Source: Xanthomonas theicola
GTDB lineage: Bacteria; Pseudomonadota; Gammaproteobacteria; Xanthomonadales; Xanthomonadaceae
Length of the DNA stretch: 64,000 nt
NCBI RefSeq assembly: GCF_014236795.1
Contig: NZ_CP049017.1
Location: 2,768,001-2,832,000 of the forward strand
Direction of reading: 5' to 3'
Shown: piece after piece, positions 9,599-52,390 of the stretch
Layout: each line of letters begins with the position of its first letter
How positions within the stretch are numbered: position 1 is the first letter of the stretch
Position numbers and translations under genes: made by a program
The notes under the pieces: model-generated
Seen by the model: the letters and a program-made list of their open reading frames with translations, nothing else
Database searches by the model: none
What the model was told of the DNA's origin: nothing

Positions 9599-9602
9599 AG
9601 CG

Positions 9603-36789: not shown

Positions 36790-36821
36790 TCGATACAGCG
36801 AAAGCAGTCAAGCAGTTAAAG

Positions 36822-36846: not shown

Positions 36847-36958
36847 GTCGTCTGCGCGCCACCGGCCGCGGCGCCGCGTGCCGGATGGCGCCGCGGCGGC
36901 AGGCACGGCACTGGCCGCCGTGCCGCGCACGGCGCGCCGCGCATCGCGACGGCCCGAC

Positions 36959-37156: not shown

Positions 37157-37449
37157 GCCGCACCCTGCGGCGCGACCGCATGCCTGGCTCCAACGGCTCC
37201 CGCTGCCTGGTGCGGGACCGCGCCGCACCGGGGCGCCGTTGCCGCCATCGCAGGCACCGCGATCGATAATGGACACAGCATCGCCGCCCTCCTGGTCGTC
37301 CCTGTCCGCCATGCGAACCATCACGCATCGACGCGACCCGTACCGCCAGAGTATTCGATTTCCGAACATATAGAGTCAAGCGTGCCTGTACGACAAGGCG
37401 ATGGATGCTCCATATCTTGGTAGGCCCCGTCTGCGCAAGGCCCACCGCG

Positions 37450-37800
37450 ATGAAAAGCTTCGGCGACCGCTTGCGCGAAGCCAGGAAGGCCGCGGGGCTG
37501 ACCCAGGAACAACTGGGGTTCGCGCTGGGCGTGACCAAGTCGTCGGTGTCGGCCTGGGAGAACGATCGCGAGACGCCGGGCTTCCGCCTGTTGCCGAATC
37601 TGCGCGGCGTGCTCAAGCGCTCGTTGGACGAACTGATCTGCGGCCAGGTGCAGGGCGCTGCGCGCGTCCACGATGCGTCCGCGGACTACGTGCTGCAGGC
37701 GCACGATGCGCACGAGAAGGCGCTGCTGACCCGCTACCGCAATCTGCCGGCACGGCGCCGCGAAGCGGTGCTGGAACTGCTCAAGCCGGACAAGGGCTGA
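37450..37800 (+). CDS. XRE-family transcriptional regulator
   Basis: A 116 aa Cro/C1-type regulator. The helix-turn-helix is in residues 4-57: FGDRLREARKAAGLTQEQLG, FALGVTKSSVSAWENDRETP and LLPNLRGVLKRSLDELICG. The C-terminus (HDAHEKALLTRYRNLPARRREAVLELL) is the helical tail seen in phage-type repressors. The start at ATG 37450 fits the domain. No phage genes are nearby. It lies upstream of the pilus region but transcribes toward the usher stop. Confidence 0.85.
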   Translation: MKSFGDRLREARKAAGLTQEQLGFALGVTKSSVSAWENDRETPGFRLLPNLRGVLKRSLDELICGQVQGAARVHDASADYVLQAHDAHEKALLTRYRNLPARRREAVLELLKPDKG

Positions 37801-38038
37801 GACGCGGCGCCGCCGGCGCCCGCCGAACTGCGCGGGCGCGCCGGGCATGCGGCCACGCAAGCATTCGGCGGCCAGCGCCCACTCCGAACCGGAGCGCATC
37901 GCGCCGGGCGCGGGCGTGCCCGGCGGAATCGGCGGCCCGACGCGCCTGCACGGCGCGCCGGCGATGGCGTCGCCCGCGGCCATGCCGGCGCCGCCGCCAT
38001 CGCCCCGGCAGCGCCCGGGACCGTCCTGCCGGCGGCGC

Positions 38039-40753
38039 TCAATCGGCGCGGGCGATCGGCATCAACTGCAACACGCGCTGGGCGCGCGGCTCGCGCAGCA
38101 GCGACGCGGGAACGGCGCGCTTGCTGGACGCCTCGCATTGGACCACGCCGATGTTGCGCACCATCGCGTGCAGGTCCTGGACCCGCACCGGGCAGCGGTA
38201 CAGTTCGCCCTGCTTGATCACGTACAGGGCGTCCGGCACGCGATCCAGCTCGCCCATGAACAGGCCGCCGTCGCCGATCGGCGGCACCTCGCCATTGAGC
38301 ACATAGCCGCCGTCGAGCAGATGCTCGCCATGCACCTGCAGCGTGCCGAGGTAGGTATGCAGCACCCGCGCATCGAGCGTGTGCACGGCGAGCTTGCCCG
38401 GCAACAGGAACCAGTCGAAGTCGCCGGTGCCGCCACCCAGCTGCATGGTCTGGCTGGTCACCGCCTCCGGCTCGCCGATATGCGTCCTGAAGGTCCGGTA
38501 GCTGTCGGCGCGCAGCAGCAGATGCTGCCCCTGGCGCAGGCGCTGGCGCCCCTGCATGGCGCTCAGGTCCACCTGCGCCCTGTCGTCGGCATCGCCGGGA
38601 TCGGCCGGCGCATCGAGCGTGAAGCCGACCGCGGCCGGCAGCGAGCTGCGCAGCGGGTCGCGCCCCACGAACACGCCCTGGCGGCCGATCGCCAGCGTGG
38701 AGGCGTAGCTGCCGCTGAACGCGGGCGTGTGCTCGCCGGCGCTGTAGTAGTCGTTGACGGTGGCGGCGACGTCGCCCCAGCGGCCATCGACGATGCCGCT
38801 GACGCCGGCGGACTGCGCCCCGCCGCCGCCGGCCAGGTGGACTTCCAGCTGGCGGTAGTCGCCGGCGTCCCAGGTGCGCGTCTGGCTGTAGTCGTAACCG
38901 GCGCCCCTGGCGGCGTTGCCGCCGCGCTCCCAGCGCAGGTTGGCGCGATCCAGCACGCTGCGCTGGTTGGTGCTGTCGTTGCGGTAGCGCGACGCGGTCA
39001 CGGTCAGGTAGCCGCCGCGGTCCACGCCGCCGGACTCGCGGGCGCGGTACACGCTGGCGTTGGCCAGCAGATCGACCGGACCGATCCGCCAGCTGCGGTT
39101 GGCCGACAGGCTGAGGCTGCGCAGCAGGCTGCGCTCGCGCGTCCACGCCGGCACGTCCCAGTCCTGGCCCGGCAGCGGCGACGGCGCGGCGCCTAGCGTC
39201 CAGCCGGCGCCGGCGGCCGGCCAAAACCCGGCGGGCGCCTGCCAGTAGGCGGAACGGCTCTGCCGATAGCCCAGCGCATAGCTCACCTTGCCCCATGCGG
39301 CGCTGAACGTCGCCGACTGGCTCGCGTAGCAGGACCCGGCCCCCCCCCGCCCGCAGTCCGGGGCGTCCAAGCGGTAATGCGAGAGGTTCACGCCGATCCC
39401 CTGGCCATACCAGGACAGCAACGCCGAGTCGCCGCGCGCGCCATGGCTGCCGGCGTAGGCGCTGAGGTCGGCGCTCACCTGGCTGCGGGTGAAGGCATGA
39501 GCCCAGTCCAGCCGCGCCTCGCCATACACGCGCCCGTCCTGGCGGGCCATGCCCAGGGCCGCGCTCAGGGTTTCGTCGAGGTTGTACTTGATCGCCGCCT
39601 CGGCGGCGACGCCGCGGCCGTCGCCAACGCCGTCGCCGCCGAAGCCGTCGCGGCGGACGCGCCCGGCCTGCGCGAACCACTCCCAGCTGCGCGCCTGGCC
39701 GGCGCTGGCGCCGGTGGAATACGGCACGGTCTGGCTGCGCGCCAGGCGGCCGTCCTCGTAGATGCACAGGGTGACCGGGTAACTGCCCGCCGGGAAGCCG
39801 ACGGTGCCGAACTGGACGATGCCCGCGCCCAGGTAGGCGCTGCCCAGCAGCTGCTGGCCGCGATAGGCGTCCACCCGCGCCGGACGCGGCAGGATCACCT
39901 CCAGCGGACGCCGCCGCGCGGCGGGATCGTCGTTGCGGTACGCCTGGGTGGTGCCCACGCGCACGCCGTCGAGCAGGCCCTGCGGCAGCATCTGGAAGCC
40001 ATAGCTGCCGCCCAGCGCCCCGGTCAGGTCCGCCGCGTCCATGCGCCCGGCCTGCAGGTAATGGCGGCGCCCCAGGTCGTGGCGGTAGAACGCCTGGTCC
40101 AGCGACAGCCGCTGCGATGCGTCGCCGCCGCCGTGGTTGCTCAGGTAGCGCCAGTCCACGCCCAGATAATCGGCCGCGCCCACGCCCAGCGCGGCGCGCC
40201 CGTCCACGGCCACGCTGCGATAGCCGCGCCCGCCGCTGACGTCGATCTGCTGGCTGTGGACCAGGGCGTTGCGCGCGTCGGCGCTGGGCGTGAACCAGCC
40301 GTCCGCCGGATGCCACTGCGCGCGCGCCAGCCAGTCCGGCCGCACGAACAGCGCCAGCGTCTGCCGGGCTTCGTCGTAGATGACCCCGACCGGGTCGGGA
40401 TCGGGCAGGTAGCCGCAGGCCGGGGAGAGCCGCGGGTCGCAGGCCAACTGGCTGTTGCGCGGCAATGGCGCGGCCAGCGCCGCGCGCAGCGCGGCCAGCT
40501 GTTGCGCATCCAGGTCCTGGCGCAGCGGCAGCGCCGCCAGCAGCGGCGCCGCGTCGGCGAGCACGACATGCGCGTCATCGACCTGGAACGGGTAGTCGCC
40601 CAGCGGCTTGCCCAGCAGCGAGGTGCTCAGGATTTCCGGATGCGACTGCACCAGATCCTCGAAACCGGCCGGCACCCCGCCGGCCCAGGCGGAGGCGCTC
40701 ACGCCGAGCAACAGACCCAGCGCCACGGACAACGGGTGTTTACGCTTGGACAT
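38039..40753 (-). CDS. CS1-type (class 5) fimbrial outer-membrane usher
   Basis: Outer-membrane usher for an alternate chaperone-usher pilus, 904 aa, of the CooC/CfaC type. The signal peptide (SASAWA-G) is followed by FEDLVQSHPEILSTSLLGKP and an N-terminal domain with a cysteine pair (LACDPRLSPACGYL). The translocation barrel holds many Tyr/Gly/Ser-rich strands (LSNHGGGDASQRLSLDQAFY, GGSYGFQMLPQGLLDGVRVG) and a mid plug region (SYPVTLCIYEDGRLARSQTV). The C-terminal domain with VNGEVPPI-like text (LNGEVPPIGDGG) and RCPVRVQDLHAMVRNIGVVQC ends the protein. The pilins and chaperone lie upstream on the same strand. Confidence 0.85.
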   Translation of the reverse strand: MSKRKHPLSVALGLLLGVSASAWAGGVPAGFEDLVQSHPEILSTSLLGKPLGDYPFQVDDAHVVLADAAPLLAALPLRQDLDAQQLAALRAALAAPLPRNSQLACDPRLSPACGYLPDPDPVGVIYDEARQTLALFVRPDWLARAQWHPADGWFTPSADARNALVHSQQIDVSGGRGYRSVAVDGRAALGVGAADYLGVDWRYLSNHGGGDASQRLSLDQAFYRHDLGRRHYLQAGRMDAADLTGALGGSYGFQMLPQGLLDGVRVGTTQAYRNDDPAARRRPLEVILPRPARVDAYRGQQLLGSAYLGAGIVQFGTVGFPAGSYPVTLCIYEDGRLARSQTVPYSTGASAGQARSWEWFAQAGRVRRDGFGGDGVGDGRGVAAEAAIKYNLDETLSAALGMARQDGRVYGEARLDWAHAFTRSQVSADLSAYAGSHGARGDSALLSWYGQGIGVNLSHYRLDAPDCGRGGAGSCYASQSATFSAAWGKVSYALGYRQSRSAYWQAPAGFWPAAGAGWTLGAAPSPLPGQDWDVPAWTRERSLLRSLSLSANRSWRIGPVDLLANASVYRARESGGVDRGGYLTVTASRYRNDSTNQRSVLDRANLRWERGGNAARGAGYDYSQTRTWDAGDYRQLEVHLAGGGGAQSAGVSGIVDGRWGDVAATVNDYYSAGEHTPAFSGSYASTLAIGRQGVFVGRDPLRSSLPAAVGFTLDAPADPGDADDRAQVDLSAMQGRQRLRQGQHLLLRADSYRTFRTHIGEPEAVTSQTMQLGGGTGDFDWFLLPGKLAVHTLDARVLHTYLGTLQVHGEHLLDGGYVLNGEVPPIGDGGLFMGELDRVPDALYVIKQGELYRCPVRVQDLHAMVRNIGVVQCEASSKRAVPASLLREPRAQRVLQLMPIARAD

Positions 40754-41081
40754 GGGAGAACGCCTCGAATGGAATGAAAAGGGAACACACAAACACCGCC
40801 ATGCCCGCACCGGCATGCGGCGCAGCATCGGCAATCGATGTCGGAAAAACTTGTGGCGAGATCGCCGCTGCGTGCACCGCCGCCAGAAACGCGCGCAGGT
40901 CGAGGCGGCACATTCGGCAGGACACGATGCGAGGTGCACGCAATCATCGATGCAGGGCGAGCGTACCGAAGCAGGCGGCTACATCATTCAAACATCCACC
41001 TGCCGGCGCATGCGTGCCGGCAGGAGGACAAGCGAGCGGGAAGCAACCCGCTCTATTACAGCGTCATCGGCGAATCCAGCC
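40754..41081. other. 328 bp between pilin 2 and usher, with a hairpin
   Basis: No gene is visible. It contains the hairpin at 40999-41024 listed separately. The remainder is ordinary leader sequence; no clear second promoter for the usher can be named. Confidence 0.5.
40999..41024 (-). terminator. Hairpin between pilin 2 and usher (possible attenuator)
   Basis: CCTGCCGGC (40999-41007) pairs with GCCGGCAGG (41016-41024), 57 bp after the pilin 2 stop on the minus strand. Only a short T-rich run (GATGTTTGAATG) follows. In pilus operons a hairpin here typically lets most transcripts stop after the major pilin and keeps usher expression low. Confidence 0.5.
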
Positions 41082-41585
41082 TCAGGCGCCCTGGGTGATG
41101 CTCAGCGCGATGGTGCCGGAATAGTCGCCCGCCGGCAGCCCACCATCCAAAATTTCTTTACTAGGCTTAACACCAACTTTGAAATCCAATGGCAGGAATT
41201 TAACACTATCCCAGTATTCAGACGGAGTAAAATTGACCCGATTACCAACAGCTATTTCCTTACCTCCAAGATAAACATAAAGATCGTGCTTTTCAGTTCT
41301 TTTTGCATCTTCAATATCCATCTTCGTAGGCGTGACGATGATGTTCTTGGTCATATCGTTCGTATAAAATATAACCGTTTCATATGAATAATAACGATGT
41401 TTCTTGCCAGAATTATCATTCTTGAGCTCGATATTATCAAAAATAGAGCCGTCACTCTTCTTCAGTACGACATCCGATTCAACTGTCAGATTGACAGCGA
41501 TATTCTGATCGGTCGCGAGAGCGGGAGCCGCCAACAGCACGGTCGACGCCAGAGCGGCGCTATAGACTATTGCATTTATTTTCAT
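41082..41585 (-). CDS. CS1-type fimbrial major subunit, pilin 2
   Basis: A 167 aa pilin of the CooA/CfaB type. The signal peptide (residues 1-24, ALA-T) is followed by DQNIAVNLTVESDVVLKKSDG, the donor-strand N-terminus typical of class 5 pilins. The C-terminus LPAGDYSGTIALSITQ is the closing strand. No cysteines are seen, which fits the class. The coding DNA is strongly AT-rich for this genome except for its last 60 bases. It is a paralogue of the pilin at 41884-42384. AAGGA lies upstream of the ATG. Confidence 0.85.
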   Translation of the reverse strand: MKINAIVYSAALASTVLLAAPALATDQNIAVNLTVESDVVLKKSDGSIFDNIELKNDNSGKKHRYYSYETVIFYTNDMTKNIIVTPTKMDIEDAKRTEKHDLYVYLGGKEIAVGNRVNFTPSEYWDSVKFLPLDFKVGVKPSKEILDGGLPAGDYSGTIALSITQGA

Positions 41586-41883
41586 TATATTACAATCCTT
41601 ATTCCAGAGAAATTATATGAACTGTATAGAAGCCACTACAGGCGAGGAAACACACCGCACAAGTCGATGAGGTCGCAGCCCCCGTGCCAGGCACCCTCAA
41701 CCAAGTGAGTAGCGAGCGAAGCAGATAGTCAACCCACTCCATGACAACAAGCGATGCTGAATGTTCTCTCGGGCAGACTGAGTAATGCACAGTAGAATGG
41801 TGCCGATATGGCCACCGGCCGGGGGAAGCCTCGCTGAGTAACCAGAACCGCCGCCAATCCGAAGAAATACGGCGAATCCAGCC

Positions 41884-42384
41884 TCAGGTGGATTGCGTGA
41901 TGCTCAGCGCGATGGTGCCGGAATAGTCGCCCGCCGGCAGATTTTGGGCATAGCTAGCGGTACTCGGATCAAGTATAGCAACAGCGAAATCCATAGAAGT
42001 GAAAGCAGTCGCCCCGTGATATTCAGAAGAAGAAAAAGTAGTTGGCTTATTGAGGGTCAAATCCTTTCCACCAATAATAACCCTTAGATTATAATTTTCC
42101 GAGCTATTGTGACCTGAAATATTCATTTCAGAAGGCGTCACAACAATATCGTGATTGACGTCATTTGTATTGAATACAACCGGGGTTTCTGCAGCGTATT
42201 TAATATATTGGCCAAATGGCACTTTCTTAAGTTCGATTTCTTTAAAAAGAGTACCATCCTGATTATTGATGGAGACATTAGATGCAACTTTCAATTTAAC
42301 TTCAATATTTTGGTCTGCAGCGAAAGCAGGAGCCGTTGCCAACATCATTGCAACCGCACTGACAGCGAGAGCATTGAACTTCAT
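41884..42384 (-). CDS. CS1-type fimbrial major subunit, pilin 1
   Basis: A 166 aa pilin. The signal peptide (AFA-A) is followed by DQNIEVKLKVASNVSINNQDG, then INNQDGTLFKEIELKKV, TNDVNHDIVVTPSEMNISG and the conserved end LPAGDYSGTIALSITQ. It shares this framework with pilin 2, while the middle has diverged, so both could be structural subunits or one could be a variant. The ATG at 42384 has AAGGAAA upstream; an in-frame ATG at 42417 would spoil the signal peptide. The gene is AT-rich except at the 3' end. Confidence 0.85.
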   Translation of the reverse strand: MKFNALAVSAVAMMLATAPAFAADQNIEVKLKVASNVSINNQDGTLFKEIELKKVPFGQYIKYAAETPVVFNTNDVNHDIVVTPSEMNISGHNSSENYNLRVIIGGKDLTLNKPTTFSSSEYHGATAFTSMDFAVAILDPSTASYAQNLPAGDYSGTIALSITQST

Positions 42385-42438
42385 AATTTTTCCTTTTTCA
42401 TTTTCGATGGATGGCATGAACTATCGTCATTGCCGATT

Positions 42439-43185
42439 TTATAGAGCCGCTGGCTCTAATACTTTCCGCATCACCGCGCTGTCCTCGTCGCGATAGTGCA
42501 CGACCCAGGTCCGCATCGATGCCGGACGCTCCGGCAATGCGATGACCTGCCCTGGATAGATGTTGCGCTTGAGCTCCACCGACCGGCATTGCTCCCCGGC
42601 CGCGGCGGTCGGGCAATACTCGATCGTCTCCAGGCGGGCACGGCTGGTGCCGGCGTTGCGCAGCGACTTGCCGGCGTCGGCCAGCTCCAGCTGGATGCTC
42701 GGCTGCCTGGCCTTGACCAGCGCCAGCACGCCCCAGGTGATCGAGACGCCCACCTTCGCCTGCACGCCGGCGCTGGCGGTATCGCCCGCCGCCGGCAGGT
42801 CGCTGTCCGGCGACTGCACCGGCTGTACGTACACACGGTAGACCGCGTCCTGTTCCGGCAGCGCCTGGGCGGCCAGCCGCACCATCCGCGTCGCGCCGGC
42901 CGGCAGCACCAGCCGCTGCGGCATCGCCACCAGGTCGCGGCCGTTGGTCGGGGTGGCGTCGACCTCGTGCTCGTCCGCCCTCCCTGGCGACTCCACGCGG
43001 CGGACATAGACCTTCAGATACTGGGTGGCGTCGGATTGGGACACGACCTCGAACTTGCCGACCCCCTTGCTGTCGGCCGCCAGCGTCACCGACATCGGCG
43101 TGACCTGGATCGCGGCCTGCGCCGCGCCCGCCGCCAATACCCCGAGCACCAGCAACAACACGCGACGCCTATGGAAACTAGACAT
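42439..43185 (-). CDS. CS1-type periplasmic pilus chaperone
   Basis: Periplasmic chaperone of an alternate chaperone-usher system, 248 aa (CooB/CfaA type). The signal peptide (AAQA-A) is followed by an Ig-like domain IQVTPMSVTLAADSKGVGKFEV and the subunit-binding strand LPAGATRMVRLAAQALPEQDAVYRVYVQPV. The second domain contains GVSITWGVLALVKARQPSIQLEL. Two cysteines (IEYCPTA and GEQCRS) are close enough for a disulfide. GGAG lies upstream of the ATG at 43185. It is the first gene of the minus-strand pilus operon; pilin 1 follows after 54 bp. Confidence 0.88.
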   Translation of the reverse strand: MSSFHRRRVLLLVLGVLAAGAAQAAIQVTPMSVTLAADSKGVGKFEVVSQSDATQYLKVYVRRVESPGRADEHEVDATPTNGRDLVAMPQRLVLPAGATRMVRLAAQALPEQDAVYRVYVQPVQSPDSDLPAAGDTASAGVQAKVGVSITWGVLALVKARQPSIQLELADAGKSLRNAGTSRARLETIEYCPTAAAGEQCRSVELKRNIYPGQVIALPERPASMRTWVVHYRDEDSAVMRKVLEPAAL

Positions 43186-43665
43186 GACTATCTCCAGAAA
43201 ATTGATGAGCGACGGCGCCAGTCCGGATCTGCGCCGGATGTCGCCTGCGGGATGCGGCGACCGGACACGCATCGAGCGTGGTGGCTGTGCCGGACTCGCC
43301 TGGCACGTCCCTCGAAGCGAGGCAGACTGTAAGAGTTTTCCAGGGAGGGGTTAACTGGATTTTTCTGGAAACGGCGCTGCGCAGGCGCATGCCGGGCCAG
43401 GCGCTAGCCGATCGACGCCGTGGCCGGAGGCTGGCCGGACCTCCACCACCAAGCCACCCGGCACGCCTGCGCCAGGCGCGCAGGGCCGGGCGCGCGCAGG
43501 GCGCGGACGGCCTGCCGCCGGCTTACTCCGCTGCGTCGCCGCTGCGTCGCGGGCGTCGGAAGTCGCCCGACGCGCGGCCGGGGCGTCTTCGCAGACGCGC
43601 TCGCGCGCCGCGCCACGCGCGATGGCGCCACGCGGCCGGGACCCGGCCGCGCGCCACGCCCCCGC
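43186..43665. other. 480 bp between chaperone and sensor kinase genes
   Basis: The part nearest the chaperone (43186-43371) holds its leader and a likely promoter with repeated CTGGA motifs, listed separately. The rest, 43372-43665, is GC-rich sequence downstream of the kinase stop with no gene I can support. Confidence 0.5.
43326..43371 (-). promoter_or_regulatory. Candidate promoter and regulator sites of the pilus operon
   Basis: On the minus strand a TTAACC (-35-like) is followed 17 bp later by TACAGT (-10-like, 43331-43326). TTTCCAG and CTGGAAA form an inverted repeat (43337-43343 and 43365-43371) around the -35 element, and a further CTGGA lies 10 bp from the second arm. One-turn spacing of such motifs at a -35 element is what a LuxR-type response regulator would use. 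This is inference from layout. Confidence 0.4.
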
Positions 43666-46600
43666 TCACAGCGCGAACTGCTGGCGCAATTGCCGTTCGA
43701 AGGCGTGCAGCCCCGGTTCGATGCCCGGCTGGTCGGCGGCCAGCGCCTCCAGCAGCGCGCGCGCCTGTGCGGACAGTCCGCGTTCGCCCAGCACCGCCAG
43801 GCCGCCGCCGATCTTGTGCAGACTGTCGCGGGCGCCGCCGCGATCGCCGGCGGCCATGGCCTGGTCCAGTGCGCCCAGGTCCTTGGCGGTCTCGTCGACG
43901 AACGCCTGCCGCATCGCCGCACGCACGCCGTCGCGCACGCTCTGCGCCGCCGACGCCAGCGGCTCCGGCGGGCCCAGGTAGCGTCGCAGCACCGCTTCCA
44001 GCTGTTCCAGGCCGATCGGCTTGAGCAGCAACATGTCCATGCCCGCGGCGCGCGCGCGTTCCTGCTCCTCCGGCAGGGTGCTGGCGGTCATGCCGACGAT
44101 CGGCAGGCGCTGGCCGGCGGCTTCGCCGGCACGGATCAGCTCGGTCATGCGGTAGCCATCCATGCCGGCCATGTAGCAATCGCTCAGGACCAGGGCGAAG
44201 GATTGCGCGGCGAGCGCCGCCATGCCATCGCGGCCGCTGCCGACGATCTCGTGCATGCATTGCAGTTCGATCAGCTGCTGGCGCAGCAGGATCTGGTTGG
44301 TGGGATGGTCCTCCACCACCAGCACGCTGCCGTACTCCAGGAATCCGGAACGCGGCGCCGGCGCGGGCGCCGCCACCGGGCCGGACGGCGCGCGCGGCAG
44401 CAGGCGCCCGAGCACCTGCTGCAAGGCCTTGCGGCTCAACGGATTGACGCTCAGCAAGAGGCGGCCGGACGGCTCGGCGTAGCCCAGCGTCAGCGGCTCG
44501 TCGACCACCCATGCGCAGGGCACCCCGGGCACCTGCGCCGCAGCCTCGTCCAGCAGCCATAGCGCGACCGGCGCGGCGGGCGATGCGGCGCCATCGACCG
44601 GCTCCACCCCCAGCGCCAGCAGCTGCTGGCGCACGTCCTCGCGCCGCGACGGCTCGCCCAGCGCCAGGCCGACGCGCGGCGCGCCGGCCGACGGCGGCGG
44701 CGACGCTTCCACGCACGGCATGCGCACCGCGAAGGACACCGCGGTGCCCTGGCCATGCACGCTGTGCATGGCGATGTCGCCGCCCATCAGCCGCACCAGG
44801 CGCCGGCAGATCATCAATCCCAGGCCCGAACCGCCGTATTGGCGGGCGATCGCATCGTCGGCCTGCGAGAACGGCTCGAACAGTTTTTCCAGCTGCGCCG
44901 GGGTGATCCCGATCCCGGTGTCGCGCACCTCGAAGCGGATGGTCTGCAACGGGCCCTGCTCTTCCTCCACCTGCAACGCGACGCGGATCTGCCCGTGATG
45001 GGTGAACTTGATCGCATTGCTGATCAGGTTCATCAACACCTGGCGCAGCCGGATCACGTCCAGCTGCAAGCGCCGCCCGACCCGCCGATCGACATGGCAG
45101 CGCAGCCGCAGGCCCTTGTCGTGCGCGCGATGGCCGATGGTGGACAGCACGTTCTCCAGCATCGCCACCAGGTCGGCCGGCTCGGTCACGATCTGCACCT
45201 GGTCCGATTCCAGCCGGGACAGGTCCAGGATGTCGTCGAGGATGTGCTGCAGCGAGCGCGCCGACTGCATCACCGTGGACAGCATGGCGCCGGCTTCCTC
45301 CGGCAACGGCGAGCGCGACAGGATTTCCAGCAGGCCCAGCACGCCGTTCATCGGCGTGCGGATCTCGTGGCTCATGGTGGCCAGGAAGTTGGCCTTGCTG
45401 CGCGCGGCCACTTCGGCCAGCGCGGTGGTGCGCGCCAGTTCGGACTCGTATTCGCGGGCCTTGGTGATGTCCGAGCAGACCCCGCTCCAGGCCAGCGTGC
45501 CGTCCTCCTCGCGCCGTGGCGCCGCCTCGGTGCGCAGCCACTTCCCGCCGCAGTGCGCCGCGACCTGGAATTCCAGCGACAGCGGCCGCATCCGCGCGGC
45601 CGACAGCGCGAAGCGGCGCCTGGCCCTGCGATGGTCGGCCGCCGACAGGCAGGTGGCCGGCCACTGCGGTTCGGCGGCCAGCCGCTCGCTGGACTGGCCG
45701 AACAGCTCCTCGACGTTGCCGGCCACGTAGCTGAAACAGAACGCGCCATCGCCATCGGCGCGGATCTCGAACACCGTGGCCGGCAGGTTGGCGGTGATGC
45801 GCGAGAGCATCGACTCCAGGCGCCGCGCCTTCTGCTCGGCCTCGCGGATGCTGGTCAGGTCGATGAAGGTGCTCAGCACGCCGGCGCTGGTCGCGCCATC
45901 CAGGCGATAGGGCTGGATCAGGTTCAACCAGATCCTGCGGCGGCCGTGGCGATCGGGCACGACGTATTCGCGCCGATTGGGCTCGCCGCTGGCCAGCGCC
46001 TCGCCGGTGGCCGCGATCACGCGTTGGCGCAGGTCCGGAGCGTAGTGCGACACGTCCTGCATGCGTTGTCCGACCAGGCCCTGCTCGCTGACGTCGAACG
46101 CGTCCTGGTAGGCGCGGTTGACCCGCACGTAACGCTGCTGGCCATCCTTCACCGCCACCGGCAACGGGTAGGCGTCCAGCAGCAGGCTGTTGAAGTGCAG
46201 CTGGCCGGTCAGGCGCTGCTCGGCGACCTGCAGCGCGCGCGTGCGCCTGCGCGATGCCAGGTACAGTCGCAGCACCAGCGCGATCACCAGCACCGATGCC
46301 AGGATGCTGCCGCCCACCAGCGCGAACACCCGCCGCTGCGAGACGCCGAACTGGTAGGAATTGCGCAGCCAGTGGTCGTCGATCCGGCGCCGCTGCTGCC
46401 GGGGCATGGCGTCGATCAGGTTGTCGATGATCGGGACAAGCTCGGCATGGGAGGGGGAGACGGCGATGAGCAGCCCCATCGAGATATCGGTGGGCGCGAC
46501 CACCTTGAGCCGCCCGGAGAACTCGCGGGCGATCAGCGCGTCCACCACCGCGAGGTTGCCGACATAGCCCTGGACGTGCCCGTCGAGCACCATCTGCAAC

Positions 46601-47847
46601 CCTTGCCGGTCGTTTCCCGCCGGCGCCAGCCGGCTGTGCGGCAGGCGCCTGCCCAGTACGCGGCGCAAGGTCGGATGGTCGGGCACCGCCAGGGCGGCAT
46701 GGTCCAATCCTTCCAGTGCCGAATAGGTGAGCGCGTCCGCACGCGCCACCACCACGTAGGTCACGGTGGTGAAGGGCTTGGTATAGGCCCAACCGGGTAC
46801 GCGTTCGTCCATCGCCTCCAATGGCATCAGCATGTCCAGTTCGCCGCGCTCGGCACGCGCCCGTGCCTGCGCCGAACCGCTGACCGGCACCGGCTCCACC
46901 TGCAACCCGGTTTGCCGCGTCAGATAGTCGAGATAGCCCGACGCGATCCCCTGCGGGGCGCCGTCGTCGTCCAGGAAGCCGATCGGCTGCGCGCTCGGCA
47001 CGAATCCCAGCCGCAGCGGCGCCTGGCGCTGCAGCATGGCGCGCTGCCCGGGCGTGATGGTGTCGGCGGCCGTGCGCGACTGCACGGTCCGCTGATCCAG
47101 CCAGTGCGCTTGCAGCCGCGCCAGTTCGCCCGGCGGCATTGCCGCCATCGCCGCGTCCAGACGCGCGCGCAATGCCTCCGCGCGCCAGGAGAGCGCGAAA
47201 TGCAGACCCGCATCGTCGTAGATGGACTGCGGGCGGACCTGCAGGTCGGAAAAGCCGGAACGCTTGAACACGCCGTCGAGTTGATAGGGCTCTCCCAGAT
47301 ACGCGTCGGCCCGCTTCTCCTCCACCGCCGCCAGCGCGGCGCGGGTGTTCTCCACCAGCAACGGCGGCACCGGTCCGGGCCATTGCGCCAGCCATTGCGC
47401 CACCGCCTGTCCGCGTTCGGCGACGAAACGGAATGTCCGCCAGTTGTCGCCGGTGATCGGCGCCGTTGCATTGCGCGTCACCAGCACCGGTCGCGAGTCG
47501 AGATAGCGGGTGGTGAAGATCAGGCAGCGGCTGCGCTGCTCGTTGACGATCACGTCCGGGACGATGTCGATCTCGCCCCGGCACAGCGCATCCAGGCTGT
47601 CCTGGAACGTGGGATAGCTGCGATAGGCCAGTTGCCACCCGGCGGACTGGGCCAGCCGGCGCAGGTAGTCGATGCTGTAGCCGGTCGCTCCATGCTCGCT
47701 GGGATGCGCCAGCGGCGCCAATCCCTGCCGCGAAAACCCCACCACCAACGGCGCTTGCGTTCCAGGCTGCTGTGCCCGCGCCGTGGACGGCGCCATGCAG
47801 AGCACCGTCCAGCCGACGAACAGCGTCCACAACAGCCTGGCCGTCAT
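43666..47847 (-). CDS. BvgS/EvgS-type hybrid sensor histidine kinase
   Basis: A 1393 aa unorthodox sensor. Order: signal peptide, two periplasmic solute-binding (Venus flytrap) domains (about residues 35-265 and 270-500), a membrane helix near 515-535, two PAS domains (about 565-690 and 695-810), the HisKA domain with His827 in SHEIRTPMNG, HATPase with GGSGLGLMICRRL, a degenerate receiver-like stretch, an active receiver with Asp1223 in LSDCYMAGMDGY, and an HPt domain with His1344 in HKIGGGLAVLG. This supports a His-Asp-His-Asp phosphorelay to the adjacent regulator. I chose ATG 47847, with GGAGG at the end of the upstream regulator gene as ribosome binding site; an earlier ATG at 47862 lies before that site. 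Confidence 0.9.
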   Translation of the reverse strand: MTARLLWTLFVGWTVLCMAPSTARAQQPGTQAPLVVGFSRQGLAPLAHPSEHGATGYSIDYLRRLAQSAGWQLAYRSYPTFQDSLDALCRGEIDIVPDVIVNEQRSRCLIFTTRYLDSRPVLVTRNATAPITGDNWRTFRFVAERGQAVAQWLAQWPGPVPPLLVENTRAALAAVEEKRADAYLGEPYQLDGVFKRSGFSDLQVRPQSIYDDAGLHFALSWRAEALRARLDAAMAAMPPGELARLQAHWLDQRTVQSRTAADTITPGQRAMLQRQAPLRLGFVPSAQPIGFLDDDGAPQGIASGYLDYLTRQTGLQVEPVPVSGSAQARARAERGELDMLMPLEAMDERVPGWAYTKPFTTVTYVVVARADALTYSALEGLDHAALAVPDHPTLRRVLGRRLPHSRLAPAGNDRQGLQMVLDGHVQGYVGNLAVVDALIAREFSGRLKVVAPTDISMGLLIAVSPSHAELVPIIDNLIDAMPRQQRRRIDDHWLRNSYQFGVSQRRVFALVGGSILASVLVIALVLRLYLASRRRTRALQVAEQRLTGQLHFNSLLLDAYPLPVAVKDGQQRYVRVNRAYQDAFDVSEQGLVGQRMQDVSHYAPDLRQRVIAATGEALASGEPNRREYVVPDRHGRRRIWLNLIQPYRLDGATSAGVLSTFIDLTSIREAEQKARRLESMLSRITANLPATVFEIRADGDGAFCFSYVAGNVEELFGQSSERLAAEPQWPATCLSAADHRRARRRFALSAARMRPLSLEFQVAAHCGGKWLRTEAAPRREEDGTLAWSGVCSDITKAREYESELARTTALAEVAARSKANFLATMSHEIRTPMNGVLGLLEILSRSPLPEEAGAMLSTVMQSARSLQHILDDILDLSRLESDQVQIVTEPADLVAMLENVLSTIGHRAHDKGLRLRCHVDRRVGRRLQLDVIRLRQVLMNLISNAIKFTHHGQIRVALQVEEEQGPLQTIRFEVRDTGIGITPAQLEKLFEPFSQADDAIARQYGGSGLGLMICRRLVRLMGGDIAMHSVHGQGTAVSFAVRMPCVEASPPPSAGAPRVGLALGEPSRREDVRQQLLALGVEPVDGAASPAAPVALWLLDEAAAQVPGVPCAWVVDEPLTLGYAEPSGRLLLSVNPLSRKALQQVLGRLLPRAPSGPVAAPAPAPRSGFLEYGSVLVVEDHPTNQILLRQQLIELQCMHEIVGSGRDGMAALAAQSFALVLSDCYMAGMDGYRMTELIRAGEAAGQRLPIVGMTASTLPEEQERARAAGMDMLLLKPIGLEQLEAVLRRYLGPPEPLASAAQSVRDGVRAAMRQAFVDETAKDLGALDQAMAAGDRGGARDSLHKIGGGLAVLGERGLSAQARALLEALAADQPGIEPGLHAFERQLRQQFAL

Positions 47848-47851
47848 TCGA

Positions 47852-48484
47852 TCAACCTCCATGCAGTTCGCGGAAGTACTGGAACAACTGCGCGTCGGAG
47901 GCCACGCCCAATTTGCGCTTGGCCGAGATCTTGGCCCAGCTCACGGTCTTGATGCTGCGGCTGAGCGCCTGCGCCACTTCCGCCGGAGAACTGCCCTGCG
48001 CCAACAGGCGTATGACCTCGATCTCGCGGCCGGTCAGTTCCACCTGGTTGCTGAGGCGCTGGGCATCGGCCTGCAGCAGGCGGTCCTGTATCCGCGCATC
48101 GATGTAGCGCCGCCCGAAGAGCAGCGCGTTGGCCGCGTTGGGAAGCTCCATGATATCGCTGGACTTGTGCATGATCCCGATGTTGTCCAGCTCCAGCACC
48201 TGGGTGATGAGCGCCACGTTGTCCAGCGCCGAAAACAGCAGCATCGGCAGCATCGGATGGCGCCGCCGCAGCAGCTTGAGCAGTTGCATGCCGTCGCCCT
48301 CCTTGTCGGGCATGTTGTAGTCGACGATCAGCAGGTCGCAGCGGACCGTCGTCAGCACCTGCAGCAACTCGGGCCCGTTGGCCGCGGTCGCGACGACGTC
48401 ATAGAAGCCGTCGACGCCGAGCACGAAACGACATCCCTGGACCACCGCCGGATGGTCGTCGGCCACCACCACTCGTCTCGTCAT
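47852..48484 (-). CDS. LuxR/NarL-family response regulator (RcsB/BvgA-like)
   Basis: A 210 aa response regulator. The receiver domain has acidic residues in VVVADDHPAVV, phosphoacceptor Asp55 in LLIVDYNMPDKEG and Lys107 in GIMHKSSDI. The LuxR-type HTH spans about residues 148-205: LTGREIEVIRLLAQGSSPAEV, then LSRSIKTVSWAKISAKRKLGV. The SIKTVS and KLGV spelling is close to RcsB and BvgA. GGGAG precedes the ATG at 48484. The kinase start follows just past its stop, so the two are translationally coupled. It is the likely activator or repressor of the pilus genes on both sides. Confidence 0.9.
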   Translation of the reverse strand: MTRRVVVADDHPAVVQGCRFVLGVDGFYDVVATAANGPELLQVLTTVRCDLLIVDYNMPDKEGDGMQLLKLLRRRHPMLPMLLFSALDNVALITQVLELDNIGIMHKSSDIMELPNAANALLFGRRYIDARIQDRLLQADAQRLSNQVELTGREIEVIRLLAQGSSPAEVAQALSRSIKTVSWAKISAKRKLGVASDAQLFQYFRELHGG

Positions 48485-48779
48485 GCATGTATCTCCCAGC
48501 GTCCTTGATATTGCAGCGCATGCCGGCTGCATGCCTGAACTATATCAACCGGCAAAGGCCCAACAAGCATGCATTCCCCGTAAACGGCAAATCCGGAATT
48601 TTCCAGTTCGCCTCGCGCGCGCGGCGCGGCATCATCCACGCATTCAAAAGCAGCAGCCGCCATGGGCTCCTCCACCCGGAGGAGCCTGGTGGGCGTCCGT
48701 ACGCCGACGCCCGCCGCGCTGCCCCATCCACCGCATGTCCTGTGGCTGCAGAGGCACATGCACACACACAGCCGCCATC
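48485..48779. promoter_or_regulatory. Divergent promoter region between regulator and tip-adhesin genes
   Basis: This 295 bp gap serves the regulator-kinase pair on the minus strand and the adhesin-EAL pair on the plus strand. Its left part is the less GC-rich (TGATATTGCAG, AACTATATCAACC). The heptamer TTTCCAG (in GGAATTTTCCAGTTCG, about 48599-48605) is the same as in the chaperone promoter region, which would let one regulator bind both. No exact promoter can be fixed by eye. Confidence 0.35.
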
Positions 48780-49823
48780 ATGAAAACGCCCACCCACATT
48801 GCTGCACTCTCGCTGGCCGCCCTGCTGTCCGCCCATGCCGGCGCCGCAGCGGCGCAAACCCCTGCGCCCGGCGGCACGCGGCAGGTGAGGCTCAGCGCCA
48901 GAACCCACATGAGCCAGGACCTGGTGATCGCCGAGAACCAGGTGTTCGCGCGTCTGGACCCGCAGGCGCAGGCCCCGGCGACATGGCTGGCCTGTGCGCC
49001 CGGCAACAGCCCGGCCACTGGCGCGTGCCCGGACAAGCACACCGACCAGCGCGACGCCGCCACCCCCATCGGCCTGACGTTCACCGACCAGAACGGCCAC
49101 AGCGTCCCGCTGCAGCTGCTCGCCTGGAGCAGTTGGGCCGACCCGGCCGGCAGCGGCGGCGGCCAGCTCAAGATGGCATTGAATTCCACGGCGCCGCCGC
49201 CGGCCGGGGCCCAGGTGGCCGCGCGCACCTACTCGATCCGCCTGCCGGCCGGCAGCGTCAACGCGCTGCCGGCCGGCACCTGGCACGCCACGCTGCGACT
49301 GGACGCGCGGCAGGCCGCCGGTGCAATGGCCACGTATGGCTACGACATCACCCTGGACATCGACGACGATGGCGCCGCCATCTATTTTCCGAAGGGACGT
49401 TCCATGCCCTTGCGCAGCCGCGCGGCCGGCGCGCCGCCGAGCGGCGAGATCGCGCTGTGCCTCTACGATGGCCGGGGCCGGGAGCCAATGGACTACGAAT
49501 TGCAGTTGCTGGACCCCGAATCCGGCAACGGCCGCTTCGAACTGCACAACGCCGTGGACAACACACCGATCGCCTACCAAGTGCTGAGCAGCGCTCCCGG
49601 CAGCGACGGCGCGCGCGATATCGCATGGCAGTACGGCCAGATCAAGCGCTTCGCTCGCATCGATGCGCGGTTCAAGCGCACGACGCGTATCCCGGGACTG
49701 CCCATGGACGTGACCTGCGCACCATGGACCCTGCGAGTGAAAGTCTCTCCCCAGGATTACGCGAGCAAGCCGGCCGGCCGTTACAGCGGCGTCCTGCGGG
49801 TCCATTTCACCCCCTCCACGTGA
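48780..49823 (+). CDS. CS1-type pilus tip adhesin/minor subunit (CooD/CfaE-like)
   Basis: A 347 aa exported protein with a signal peptide (AAAA-Q) and the two-domain layout of class 5 tip adhesins. The N-terminal domain has LSARTHMSQDLVIAENQVFA and a cysteine pair (WLACAPGN, TGACPDKH). The C-terminal pilin domain has a second pair (IALCLYDGRGREP, MDVTCAPWTLRVKVSPQDY) and ends in KPAGRYSGVLRVHFTPS, as CfaE and CooD do. The tip adhesin starts pilus assembly at the usher. It is placed away from its operon, on the opposite strand, past the regulatory genes. The EAL gene follows after 7 bp. Confidence 0.78.
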   Translation: MKTPTHIAALSLAALLSAHAGAAAAQTPAPGGTRQVRLSARTHMSQDLVIAENQVFARLDPQAQAPATWLACAPGNSPATGACPDKHTDQRDAATPIGLTFTDQNGHSVPLQLLAWSSWADPAGSGGGQLKMALNSTAPPPAGAQVAARTYSIRLPAGSVNALPAGTWHATLRLDARQAAGAMATYGYDITLDIDDDGAAIYFPKGRSMPLRSRAAGAPPSGEIALCLYDGRGREPMDYELQLLDPESGNGRFELHNAVDNTPIAYQVLSSAPGSDGARDIAWQYGQIKRFARIDARFKRTTRIPGLPMDVTCAPWTLRVKVSPQDYASKPAGRYSGVLRVHFTPST

Positions 49824-49830
49824 GCCACGC

Positions 49831-50712
49831 ATGCTGAACGACCTTCACGCCGCGCCCATGCCGCGCTGGCGCCATGCCCGCATGGAAAGACCCGCCGCGC
49901 CGGCCCAGGCCGACGCGGCGCTCGTCGATGCGGACGGCCCCTGCGTCGGCCAGGACATCGCCGCGCTGCACCTGCGCTACCAGCCGATCTACCGCACCGA
50001 CGGCGGCCTGCACAGCATCGAGGCGCTGTTGCGCGAGAAGGAGCCGCGGCGTGGCGCATGTTTCCCACGCGCGCTGGTGGCCGGACTGCGCAGCCAGCGA
50101 CGCCTGGCCGAACTGGACTGCCATGTGCTCGACCAGGCGAGCAAGGCACTGTGCCTGCTGGAACAGGCGCACGGGCAACCGATGCCGCTGTCGGTCAATG
50201 TCGCGATGGAATCGCTCGACGATGACGGCTTCCTGCGCGAGCTGGAACGCGCGCAGAACCGCCTGAGCGGGCAGCTGACCCTCGAATTGCTCGAAACATC
50301 GGCCGGGCGGCCGAGCCGATCGCTGAAACAACGGATGCAGGCGCTGCGCGGCAACGGCCTGCGTCTGTCCCTGGACGATTACGGCACCGGCCACTCCTCG
50401 CTGCTGCGCCTGCTCGACTTCGCGACCTTCAGCGAAATCAAGCTGTCCAGCGAACTGACCCACGACTGCGCCAACGACCCGATGCGGATGACGCTGATCA
50501 GGCACAGCTACCAGCTGGCCCGCGAACTGGCACTGGACTTCGTGCTGGAAGGCATCGAATCGGCCGACGCACTGCGCATGCTGGCCACGCTGGACATGAC
50601 CCGCGCAACCGCCATCCAGGGCCATGCGCTGTGCCGGCCGGTGCCTTATGCGCAGCTGCGCGTGCTGTCCAGGCACGGTCACCTGCACCACTGCTGGCAC
50701 GCGATCAACTGA
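49831..50712 (+). CDS. EAL-domain c-di-GMP phosphodiesterase
   Basis: A 293 aa protein with a single EAL domain and a short N-terminus (about 45 residues) that has no receiver or membrane segment. The signature is IEALLRE (Glu64). Other catalytic positions are present: Asn123 in SVNVAME, a glutamate in LTLELLETS, Asp182-Asp183 in LSLDDYGTGHSSL, Lys204 in SEIKLSS, a glutamate in VLEGIES and Gln263 in AIQGHALCRPVP. So hydrolysis of c-di-GMP is likely, although several flanking residues are unusual. It is expressed with the tip adhesin (7 bp gap). Confidence 0.88.
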   Translation: MLNDLHAAPMPRWRHARMERPAAPAQADAALVDADGPCVGQDIAALHLRYQPIYRTDGGLHSIEALLREKEPRRGACFPRALVAGLRSQRRLAELDCHVLDQASKALCLLEQAHGQPMPLSVNVAMESLDDDGFLRELERAQNRLSGQLTLELLETSAGRPSRSLKQRMQALRGNGLRLSLDDYGTGHSSLLRLLDFATFSEIKLSSELTHDCANDPMRMTLIRHSYQLARELALDFVLEGIESADALRMLATLDMTRATAIQGHALCRPVPYAQLRVLSRHGHLHHCWHAIN

Positions 50713-50779
50713 TCCGCACCGGGGCCGCAGGCTGGCGCGCTCCACCCTCACGATCGCCGGCCAACCCGGTGCGCCGCCG

Positions 50780-50808
50780 CCACGCCGCCGGCGCGAGCGG
50801 CGGCGTGG
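50780..50808. terminator. Hairpin between convergent EAL and emrB genes
   Basis: A perfect 11 bp stem, CCACGCCGCCG (50780-50790) with CGGCGGCGTGG (50798-50808), around a 7-base loop lies just beyond the emrB stop and 67 bp after the EAL stop. There is no T run, but its place between convergent genes suggests a shared 3' boundary. Confidence 0.55.
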
Positions 50809-50809
50809 C

Positions 50810-52390
50810 TCAGTGCCCGCCGGCGGCGGCCGCTCCGCCGCCGCCGGCGAACGGCGGCCTGGCCAGCCACAGGAAAAAGATGATGCCCAGGAACACCCAG
50901 CCCAGCAGGTAGAAGATGTCGTTGAAGCCCATCTGCGAGGCCTGGTGGTTGATGGTGTTGTTGAGGAAGGCCGCGCCGGTCTGCAGATCGCCCTGCCCCA
51001 TCGCCTGCACCTGCTCCTGCATGCCCGGGGTGTAGATCGAGATGTGCTCGGTGAGGTGCGCGTGGTGCATCTGCGTGCGCTTGGCCCAGAAGTAGGTGGT
51101 CAGCGAGGCGGCGAAGCTGCCGCCCAGCGTGCGCAGGAACGTGGCCAGGCCGGAGCCGGCCGCGATCTCGCGCCCGTCCAGATCCGACAGCAGGATCTGC
51201 AGCACCGGCATGAAGAACAGCGCCACGCCCACGCCCATCAGCAACTGCACCCCGGCCACGTGCGCGAAGTCGACCTGCAGGTTGAAGTCCGAACGCATGA
51301 AGCTGGTCGCGGCCATGAAGATGAAGGCGATGCTGGCGAGCAGGCGCAGGTCGAAGCGCGGGGCGTACTTGCCGACGAACGGGGTCATGATCACCGGCAG
51401 CACGCCGATCGGCGCGGTGGCCAGGCCGGCCCAGATCGCGGTGTAGCCCATGTCGCGCTGCAGCCACTGCGGGATCAGCAGCGACACGCTGAAGAACGCG
51501 GCGTAGGCCACGATCAGCGCCAGGGTGCCGGCGCGGAAGTTGCGGTGGCGGAACAGCCGCAGGTTGACGATCGGGTCCTTGTCGGTCAGTTCCCAGATCA
51601 GGAACACCGCCAGCGCCACCACCGAGACCGCGGCCAGCACCACGATCTTGTCCGAGCTGAACCAGTCCTCGTCGTTGCCCAGGTCCAGCACCAGTTGCAG
51701 GCAGCCCACGCCGATGACCAGGGTGATCAGGCCGACGTAGTCCATGCGCGGGCGCTCGACCGGTTCCGGGCGGTCGCGCAGCTGCGCGCCGACCACGATC
51801 GCGGCGATGATGCCCAGCGGCACGTTGATCAGGAAGATCCATTCCCAGCTGTAGTTGTCGGTGATCCAGCCGCCCAGGATCGGACCGGCGATCGGCGCGA
51901 CCACGGTGATCATCGCCAGCAGCGCCAACGCCTGCCCGCGTTTCTCGCGCGGGTAGATCGACACCAGCAGGCTCTGCGTGATCGGATACATCGGCCCGCA
52001 CACGAAGCCCTGGATCGCACGCGACACCACCAGCATGCCCATGCTCTGCGCCAGGCCGCACAGCAGCGAGGCGATGGTGAACGCCAGCGTCGCCCACACG
52101 AACAGCTTGGTCTCGCCGAAACGCCGGCTCAGGAAGCCGGTCAGCGGCAACGCGATCGCGTTGCTGACCGCGAACGAGGTGATCACCCAGGTCGCCTGCT
52201 GCGCACTGGCGCCGAGGTTGCCGGCGATGGTCGGCAGCGAGACGTTGGCGATGGTGGTGTCGAGCACCTGCATGAACGAGGCCATCGCCAGGCCCACCGT
52301 GCACAAGGCCACGCTGGGCGGGCGGAACCCGGCGGCGGCCGGTACGCCCGGAGCCCCGGGCGCGGCAGGAATGGCAGCTTGGTTGGACAT
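50810..52390 (-). CDS. emrB: EmrB-type MFS multidrug efflux permease (DHA2, 14 TM)
   Basis: Inner-membrane drug:proton antiporter, 526 aa with about 14 hydrophobic segments. The DHA2 signatures are seen: QVLDTTIANVSLPTIAG in helix 1, FLSRRFGETKLF in the loop 2/3 motif, and AIAGPILGGWITDNYSWEWIF in motif C and the following loop. With EmrA (periplasmic adaptor) and the EmrC outer-membrane factor encoded upstream it should form a tripartite pump across both membranes. It is the last gene of the emrR-emrC-emrA-emrB row, starting 8 bp after emrA. Confidence 0.93.
   Translation of the reverse strand: MSNQAAIPAAPGAPGVPAAAGFRPPSVALCTVGLAMASFMQVLDTTIANVSLPTIAGNLGASAQQATWVITSFAVSNAIALPLTGFLSRRFGETKLFVWATLAFTIASLLCGLAQSMGMLVVSRAIQGFVCGPMYPITQSLLVSIYPREKRGQALALLAMITVVAPIAGPILGGWITDNYSWEWIFLINVPLGIIAAIVVGAQLRDRPEPVERPRMDYVGLITLVIGVGCLQLVLDLGNDEDWFSSDKIVVLAAVSVVALAVFLIWELTDKDPIVNLRLFRHRNFRAGTLALIVAYAAFFSVSLLIPQWLQRDMGYTAIWAGLATAPIGVLPVIMTPFVGKYAPRFDLRLLASIAFIFMAATSFMRSDFNLQVDFAHVAGVQLLMGVGVALFFMPVLQILLSDLDGREIAAGSGLATFLRTLGGSFAASLTTYFWAKRTQMHHAHLTEHISIYTPGMQEQVQAMGQGDLQTGAAFLNNTINHQASQMGFNDIFYLLGWVFLGIIFFLWLARPPFAGGGGAAAAGGH

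What the first reader, a model, noticed from the sequence alone, without database searches (positions are those of the whole stretch)
38039..50712. A CS1-type pilus module with a built-in phosphorelay and a c-di-GMP phosphodiesterase
Seen: chaperone, two pilins and usher on one strand; tip adhesin plus EAL protein on the other; between them a BvgS/EvgS-type hybrid kinase and an RcsB/BvgA-like regulator that are translationally coupled. Known: class 5 pili are usually four-gene operons without local regulators, while in Pseudomonas the Roc and Rcs/Pvr systems join a BvgS-like sensor, a LuxR-type regulator and an EAL protein to control cup fimbriae. Inference: this locus has reached the same logic with a different pilus class, and the EAL protein lacks the receiver domain found in RocR/PvrR. 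It could be an undescribed surface-attachment switch.
Basis: partly seen in the sequence, partly recalled or inferred. Interest (0 to 1): 0.75.

Follow-up and report, generated by a model that had tools for sequence, protein, structure and literature searches.

The report
Pilus gene set with own signalling
A stretch of bacterial DNA carries the genes for a class-5 surface pilus together with its own sensor kinase, regulator and a likely c-di-GMP-degrading enzyme; a sensor-controlled class-5 pilus is already known from Burkholderia, but the version with the enzyme was seen here in only two distantly related bacteria and looks like a separate variant.

Summary
In detail: usher, two pilins, chaperone, BvgS-type hybrid kinase, LuxR-type regulator, CblD-family tip adhesin and a stand-alone EAL protein fill 38039-50712. 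A class-5 pilus under a local hybrid-kinase phosphorelay is not new: Burkholderia cable pili have CblS/CblT/CblR, and that layout is visible in two Burkholderia plasmid records. What is unusual is the EAL gene directly behind the tip gene. Of 34 class-5 loci compared, 2 show an EAL gene in the fetched stretch: the window and Pseudomonas poae DSM 14936, which carries chaperone-pilin-usher-tip-EAL plus kinase and regulator. The two regulators fall in one clade (99/97), apart from CblR-type and Roc/Pvr-type ones. The locus is accessory: the tip gene was found in 1 of 20 genus genomes, and in 6 of 6 relatives fetched 1.8-1.9 kb stands between the same flanks. Best reading: a phosphorelay-switched class-5 pilus with a c-di-GMP phosphodiesterase as brake. 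Function untested. New variant of a known kind.

The parts
38039..40753 (-). class-5 (alpha) usher, TcfC/CblC type
   Evidence: Pfam Usher_TcfC 3.2e-44, TcfC 4.9e-15; best plasmid matches two Burkholderia records, 31.6-32.9% over 96%, one annotated CblC
41082..41585 (-). pilin 1
   Evidence: TcfB 1.8e-8, below the model's cut-off; no pilin Pfam match even at 10
41884..42384 (-). pilin 2
   Evidence: TcfB 1.4e-6, cable_major 2.4e-4, both below cut-off; CS1 pilin Pfam 0.0091, below cut-off
42439..43185 (-). alternate-family chaperone, TcfA/CblB type
   Evidence: TcfA 6.9e-24, below cut-off; a homologue in each of the 34 class-5 loci compared
43186..43665 (.). probable pilus operon promoter region (480 bp between kinase stop and chaperone start)
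   Evidence: gap between the genes; inverted repeats above shuffles but G+C-rich and nested, unproven
43666..47862 (-). BvgS/EvgS-type hybrid kinase: SBP_bac_3 twice, PAS domains, HisKA, HATPase, REC, Hpt
   Evidence: Pfam; phosphorelay motifs at residues 831, 1224, 1348
47852..48484 (-). RcsB/BvgA-like response regulator (REC + LuxR HTH)
   Evidence: Pfam, NCBIfam best RcsB 8e-37, below cut-off; clade with Xanthomonas axonopodis and Pseudomonas proteins 99/97
48485..48785 (.). divergent promoter region between regulator and tip gene (301 bp)
   Evidence: gap between the genes; inverted repeats above shuffles, unproven
48786..49823 (+). CfaE/CblD-family tip adhesin
   Evidence: Pfam CblD 8.6e-31
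49831..50712 (+). stand-alone EAL protein, probable c-di-GMP phosphodiesterase, no receiver domain
   Evidence: Pfam EAL 1.9e-37 only; acidic, Asn, Lys and Gln motif residues kept, KxD is KxS and ExTE is ExLE

Best explanation
An accessory, probably horizontally acquired class-5 (alpha) chaperone-usher pilus module with its own signalling. Shown: gene content, conserved phosphorelay motifs, tip and EAL genes 7 nt apart, the same gene set in Pseudomonas poae, and a regulator clade shared by the two. Inferred: the kinase senses a periplasmic ligand with its two SBP domains, passes phosphate His832 -> Asp1228 -> His1349 -> regulator Asp, and the regulator switches the pilus operon and the divergent tip-EAL pair. 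The tip adhesin starts pilus assembly (known of CfaE/CblD proteins, recalled). The EAL protein, made together with the tip, lowers c-di-GMP and so limits attachment or resets the switch, as PvrR does for cupD and STM0551 for Salmonella type 1 fimbriae. Because it lacks a receiver, its activity would be set by transcription rather than by phosphorylation.
For: Gene set and domains. P. poae has chaperone-pilin-usher-tip-EAL on one strand with kinase and regulator adjoining. Regulators of both loci in one clade, 99/97. The EAL gene follows the tip gene in both. EAL residues E64, N123, E152, D182, D183, K204, E240, Q263 kept. A 79% relative of the EAL protein and further contigs with the same EAL protein and regulator exist in the protein database. 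Precedents: RcsB activates and PvrR opposes cupD (abstract); STM0551 deletion derepresses type 1 fimbriae (abstract); CblSTR controls cable pili (passages).
Against: No expression, binding or enzyme data. The EAL protein departs from consensus at two motif sites. The two EAL proteins are 28% identical and the EAL tree does not tell whether they share an origin; the kinase sister relation is unsupported (74/52) and the usher one weak (85, quick tree). Gene order differs between the two loci. Only two complete loci were seen; P. poae was reached by searching with a relative of the window's regulator, and two more weakly matching Pseudomonas loci fetched with it (L157, L158) have kinase, EAL and regulator but no usher in the stretch. 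No regulator site was established.
Confidence: 0.55

Rival explanations
1. Ordinary cable-pilus type system: the phosphorelay controls the class-5 pilus as CblSTR does, and the EAL gene is a passenger that tunes general c-di-GMP levels, with no special link to the pilus.
For: Regulator and kinase without EAL occur beside class-5 pili in Burkholderiaceae. No EAL gene was found in 32 of 34 class-5 loci.
Against: EAL follows the tip gene in both the window and P. poae, and both regulators are in one clade apart from the CblR-type one.
Confidence: 0.25
2. The EAL protein is a non-catalytic c-di-GMP receptor or binding partner, for instance of the regulator or kinase, rather than an enzyme.
For: Substitutions at two motif positions and a very long branch.
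Against: Acidic, Asn, Lys and Gln motif residues are kept; the P. poae protein has KxD and ExTE.
Confidence: 0.12
3. The kinase-regulator pair mainly controls genes elsewhere and sits beside the pilus through shared transfer.
For: BvgS-like pairs of this kind also occur without a detected usher nearby, e.g. L019, L021, L031, L035.
Against: Relatives of this regulator lie in the fetched stretch of 15 of 34 class-5 loci, and PapC-type ushers in 22 of 85 regulator loci, one of the 22 being the source of the usher query.
Confidence: 0.08

Closest known systems
Cable pilus cblBACD with CblS/CblT/CblR (Burkholderia)
   Same: Class-5 pilus of chaperone, pilin, CblC usher and CblD tip with nearby BvgS-like kinases and a LuxR-type regulator.
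   Different: Two kinases there, one here; no EAL gene found in L097/L098 or in 12 further Burkholderiaceae places; the L097, L098 and L172 kinases form a separate 100/100 clade; holding the two groups of regulators together gave AU p 0.03.
cupD with RcsCB/PvrSR, and cupB/cupC with Roc (Pseudomonas aeruginosa)
   Same: Sensor kinase, LuxR-type activator and EAL protein linked to a chaperone-usher cluster (abstract, passages).
   Different: Two sensors there, and PvrR is a response regulator with EAL; the window's EAL has no receiver and its usher is TcfC-type. Regulators and kinases of loci that I read as Roc/Pvr-like by gene order (L055, L060, L078) fall in other clades. That cup ushers are PapC-type is recalled.
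Salmonella fim cluster with FimZ and STM0551
   Same: Regulatory genes and an EAL phosphodiesterase inside the fimbrial cluster (abstract).
   Different: Type 1 fimbriae; no kinase among the genes that the abstract names; STM0551 is given as 11.4 kDa, here 293 aa.
BvgAS / EvgAS phosphorelays
   Same: Kinase architecture SBP-SBP-PAS-HisKA-HATPase-REC-Hpt with a LuxR-type regulator (BvgS architecture recalled).
   Different: Scores far below the EvgS equivalog cut-off (249.7 against 1995 bits).

Membership tests
Class-5 (alpha) chaperone-usher pilus | TcfC/CooC-type usher | tested here: met
   Usher_TcfC 3.2e-44, TcfC 4.9e-15; CooC_C 1.4e-4 is below its cut-off
Class-5 (alpha) chaperone-usher pilus | CfaE/CblD tip adhesin | tested here: met
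   CblD 8.6e-31
Class-5 (alpha) chaperone-usher pilus | CS1-type major pilin | tested here: inconclusive
   PF04449 0.0091 for one pilin, below cut-off, none for the other; TcfB/cable_major weak; the P. poae pilin matches PF04449 at 1.1e-23
Class-5 (alpha) chaperone-usher pilus | one operon chaperone-pilin-usher-tip (usual, not universal: the usher-tip-chaperone order in L109-L113 and L115 differs too) | tested here: not met
   window: chaperone-pilin-pilin-usher on minus, tip on plus 5.6 kb away; P. poae keeps the usual order
CblSTR-controlled cable pilus | two kinases, hybrid CblS and unorthodox CblT | tested here: not met
   one kinase in the window locus; two in L097/L098
CblSTR-controlled cable pilus | regulator descended with CblR | tested here: inconclusive
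   separate place in the tree, AU p 0.03 against joining; the group was partly named after the quick tree was seen
Roc/Pvr-Rcs system | receiver-EAL protein | tested here: not met
   EAL domain only; for comparison the L158 protein has REC+EAL
Roc/Pvr-Rcs system | PapC-type cup usher | tested here: not met
   TcfC-type models match, the Usher model PF00577 is not among the matches at 0.001
BvgS/EvgS-type phosphorelay | SBP domains, PAS, HisKA, HATPase, REC, Hpt | tested here: met
   motif residues; the membrane span was read by eye only
EAL c-di-GMP phosphodiesterase | catalytic motif residues | tested here: inconclusive
   eight key residues kept, two motif substitutions; roles recalled
EAL c-di-GMP phosphodiesterase | hydrolysis of c-di-GMP | not testable with these tools
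   needs an enzyme assay

The most novel reading that the evidence does not exclude
A lineage of signalling class-5 pili separate from CblSTR and from Roc/Pvr, shared between Xanthomonas-like bacteria and Pseudomonas by transfer, in which a receiver-less c-di-GMP phosphodiesterase is made together with the tip adhesin, so that each round of tip production also sends an intracellular detachment signal.
Probability: 0.3. Interest if true: 0.68.

Novelty: new variant of a known kind. Interest (0 to 1): 0.5.

Why it matters
A compact module that carries the pilus, its sensor, its regulator and a phosphodiesterase behind the tip gene would let the link between pilus making and c-di-GMP be studied as one transferable unit. 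It would also show that class-5 pili have come to stand beside local phosphorelays more than once.

Tried and rejected
Window-only hypothesis rejected: P. poae carries the set. Fixed genus trait rejected: tip in 1 of 20 genomes; with the kinase at E 1e-60 or better 5 of 20 genomes match, the own one at 100% and four others only partly at 33-42%. Wide spread rejected: CblD family in 2 of 369 genomes of the class. Descent from CblSTR not supported. An EAL tree to decide between one and two EAL captures was unresolved, with very long branches. Promoter words: 12 shared near-12-mers between the two promoter regions against 0-10 in 15 shuffles, and 8 and 20 inverted repeats against shuffle means of 1.8 and 6.5; they exceed the shuffles but are overlapping G+C-rich words, so I keep them as a lead only. 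Promoter scan: 5 promoter-like sites against 1.2 expected, all in the A+T-richer pilin stretch 41412-42387; 3 terminator-like sites against 5.6 expected. Rfam at gathering scores on 36000-51000: one tRNA. Protein-database search with the tip found only itself (only the 7997 candidates sharing most words were scored). Of 31 Pseudomonas places matching P0005 at 1e-45 or better I fetched 3; one is P. poae, the other two have no usher in the stretch. Literature: among the titles and abstract starts listed (lists cut at 8 to 15 papers where more matched; one search matched none) none told of a class-5 pilus with a local EAL protein; the two Tomich and Mohr papers are not held. Structure prediction was not run.
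Full report
What is there. The window lies in one 4.79 Mb genome. Between 38039 and 50712 stand, on the minus strand, a usher, two pilins, a chaperone, a hybrid kinase and a response regulator, and on the plus strand a tip adhesin and an EAL protein. Pfam gives Usher_TcfC and TcfC for the usher, CblD for the tip, EAL alone for the last gene, REC+GerE for the regulator, and for the kinase SBP_bac_3 twice, PAS domains, HisKA, HATPase, REC and Hpt. Pilins and chaperone have no Pfam match at 0.001 but match TcfB, cable_major and TcfA models weakly, below the curated cut-offs. The pilins are 42% identical over the 108 residues compared. Apart from the window's own, the closest regulator in the protein database is from Xanthomonas axonopodis at 87%, so I take it to be Xanthomonas or close kin (inference). 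The same database holds the regulator and the EAL protein on further contigs, and an EAL relative at 79% on a 9.7 kb contig, so the locus is not confined to one assembly.

Details of the observation. Regulator and kinase frames overlap by 11 nt if the kinase starts at 47862; an ATG five codons further would leave 4 nt between them (read). Tip and EAL genes are 7 nt apart. The phosphorelay motifs are present in kinase and regulator. The EAL protein keeps E64, N123, E152, D182, D183, K204, E240 and Q263 but has L for T in ExTE and S for D in KxD; which residues bind metal is recalled, not tested. It has no receiver domain.

Accessory nature. The tip gene is found in 1 of 20 genomes of the genus and in 13 of 299 of the order, the own genome and 12 of one other genus that are only distantly alike. 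The CblD family rings in 2 of 369 genomes of the class. The flanking transporter gene is in 20 of 20 genus genomes. In 6 of 6 relatives fetched, the window's flanks up to about 37.8 kb and from about 50.8 kb stand 1.8-1.9 kb apart instead of 13 kb. In the two of these six that I read as ORFs (L186, L189) that space holds a gene with GDSIT motifs, which looks by eye like an SGNH hydrolase; the own genome has no close copy (best 30% over part). The simplest reading is that the 13 kb block replaced that gene. None of the eight genes of the block is an integrase or transposase. A passage in PMC3542200 says that Xanthomonas genomes sequenced to its date have another chaperone-usher pilus, with spore coat U domain subunits in X. 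albilineans; the window's class-5 pilus is not that one.

Comparison of class-5 loci. I compared 34: the window; P. poae; 12 of one other Xanthomonadaceae genus; 3 further Pseudomonas (usher at 1e-30 or better in 4 of 298 genomes of the genus including P. poae; fetched); 12 places in the 11 Burkholderiaceae genomes that matched among 180 searched; and 2 Burkholderia and 3 enteric plasmid records, chosen from 106 plasmid records with a usher match. Records of one species were not weeded out. Under one uniform scan a regulator of this kind (E 1e-9 or better) is present in 15 of 34: window, P. poae, 2 of 12, 0 of 3, 9 of 12, 2 of 2, 0 of 3. A kinase matching at 1e-30 or better is in 9 of 34: window, P. 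poae, 5 of 12 Burkholderiaceae places and 2 of 2 Burkholderia plasmids; weaker kinase matches (5e-4 to 1e-18) are in 5 more (L108, L118, L164-L166). An EAL gene (11 EAL queries, E 1e-3) is in 2 of 34: window and P. poae. Most stretches were about 20 kb, some shorter or longer, and not centred alike, so distant genes may have been missed. P. poae was reached because a relative of the window's regulator (P0005) was used as query in Pseudomonas: 30 of 298 genomes matched at 1e-45 or better, 31 places; I fetched three of the places. P. poae was the best match by far (63% identical to P0005); the other two fetched (L157, L158; 45-46%) have kinase, EAL and regulator but no usher in the stretch. The regulator match was thus selected for; the pilus and EAL neighbours were not.

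The P. poae locus. L159 reads chaperone 14445-15158, CS1 pilin 13854-14381, usher 11045-13759, CblD tip 8916-10067, EAL 7929-8756, all minus, then the kinase ORF 3381-7910 on plus, and the regulator at L156:9672-10331 minus (starts are the first possible ones, so the kinase truly begins later). The EAL protein there too has only the EAL domain. Chaperone, pilin, usher, tip and EAL run in one direction with EAL last. In the window the order differs: the regulatory pair stands between the chaperone-pilin-usher block and an inverted tip-EAL pair.

Descent. In a tree of 55 regulators the window's, X. axonopodis P0003, P. poae, P0004 (Pseudomonas sp. AMR01), P0005 (P. syringae pv. actinidiae) and P0007 form one side of a branch at 99/97; in the larger quick tree of 110 the same six stand together at 93. 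Joining them with the CblR-type regulators of L097, L098 and L172 was disfavoured (AU p 0.03; the group was partly named after the quick tree had been seen). The kinases of window and P. poae are sisters in the best tree but without support (74/52), and lie outside the 100/100 clade of the kinases of L097, L098 and L172. The usher tree puts window and P. poae in one weak group with two Burkholderiaceae rows (85, quick tree, with a long-branch warning). The EAL tree decides nothing. So the regulators share descent; for the other parts this is open. The neighbourhoods of P0003, P0004, P0005 and P0007 were not seen.

Known systems. CblS, CblT and CblR control cable pili by a phosphorelay; I read passages about them in PMC3842833 and PMC4866733; the original papers are not held. 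The B. ambifaria plasmid record shows cblA, cblC and a CblD tip with a regulator and two SBP-containing kinases, one with Hpt. RcsB and PvrR act oppositely on cupD (abstract of PMC2696094). STM0551, a small EAL phosphodiesterase in the Salmonella fim cluster, represses type 1 fimbriae (abstract of PMC3487979). A review of fimbrial regulation searched by terms holds no word beginning with cbl, cable or EAL (PMC9820224, passages). Among the titles and abstract starts listed, lists cut short, none told of a class-5 pilus with a local EAL protein.

Mechanism. The anatomy fits a switch in which the periplasmic signal drives the phosphorelay, the regulator turns on pilus and tip-EAL genes, and the EAL protein limits the attached state by lowering c-di-GMP. 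The first part follows BvgS (recalled) and CblSTR logic, the last part PvrR and STM0551. The sign of regulation, the targets and the enzyme activity are inferences; a search for a shared regulator site gave only G+C-rich words above shuffles. What sets this locus apart is that the EAL protein lacks a receiver and is placed behind the tip gene in two distant bacteria.

Verdict. The finding is real and its parts are well read. The headline idea of a class-5 pilus with a built-in phosphorelay is already known from Burkholderia. The phosphodiesterase link is the new element and recurs once among the loci I could see. I rate it a new variant of a known kind.

Noticed in passing
window 41069-41081 and 41871-41883: The same 13 bases (GGCTGGATTCGCC on the minus strand) follow directly behind the stop of each pilin gene, as if the pilin gene and its 3' flank were duplicated.
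   Followed up: no
window 40900-42700: G+C falls to 0.48-0.51 over the pilin genes against about 0.70 around them.
   Followed up: no
window 35474-35560 and 36703-36789: Two tRNA-Leu (CAG) genes in opposite directions lie within about 2.5 kb of the left end of the inserted block.
   Followed up: no
window 37820-50805: Relatives L186 and L189 have a gene that looks like an SGNH hydrolase where the window has the block; no close copy was found in the own genome.
   Followed up: partly
L108 14287-14886 and L110 5275-5880: Two class-5 loci of another Xanthomonadaceae genus have a regulator of this family beside the usher but no strongly matching kinase in the fetched stretch.
   Followed up: partly
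L157 and L158: Pseudomonas loci with a hybrid kinase, an EAL protein (receiver-EAL shown for L158) and a regulator, with no usher found in the fetched stretch.
   Followed up: no
L136 5777-11552: A BvgS-like kinase and divergent regulator beside a GGDEF-EAL protein in a relative of the window's family.
   Followed up: no
L172 and L184: Burkholderiaceae class-5 loci with three regulators of this family around one pilus operon; in L184 the usher is in two pieces.
   Followed up: no
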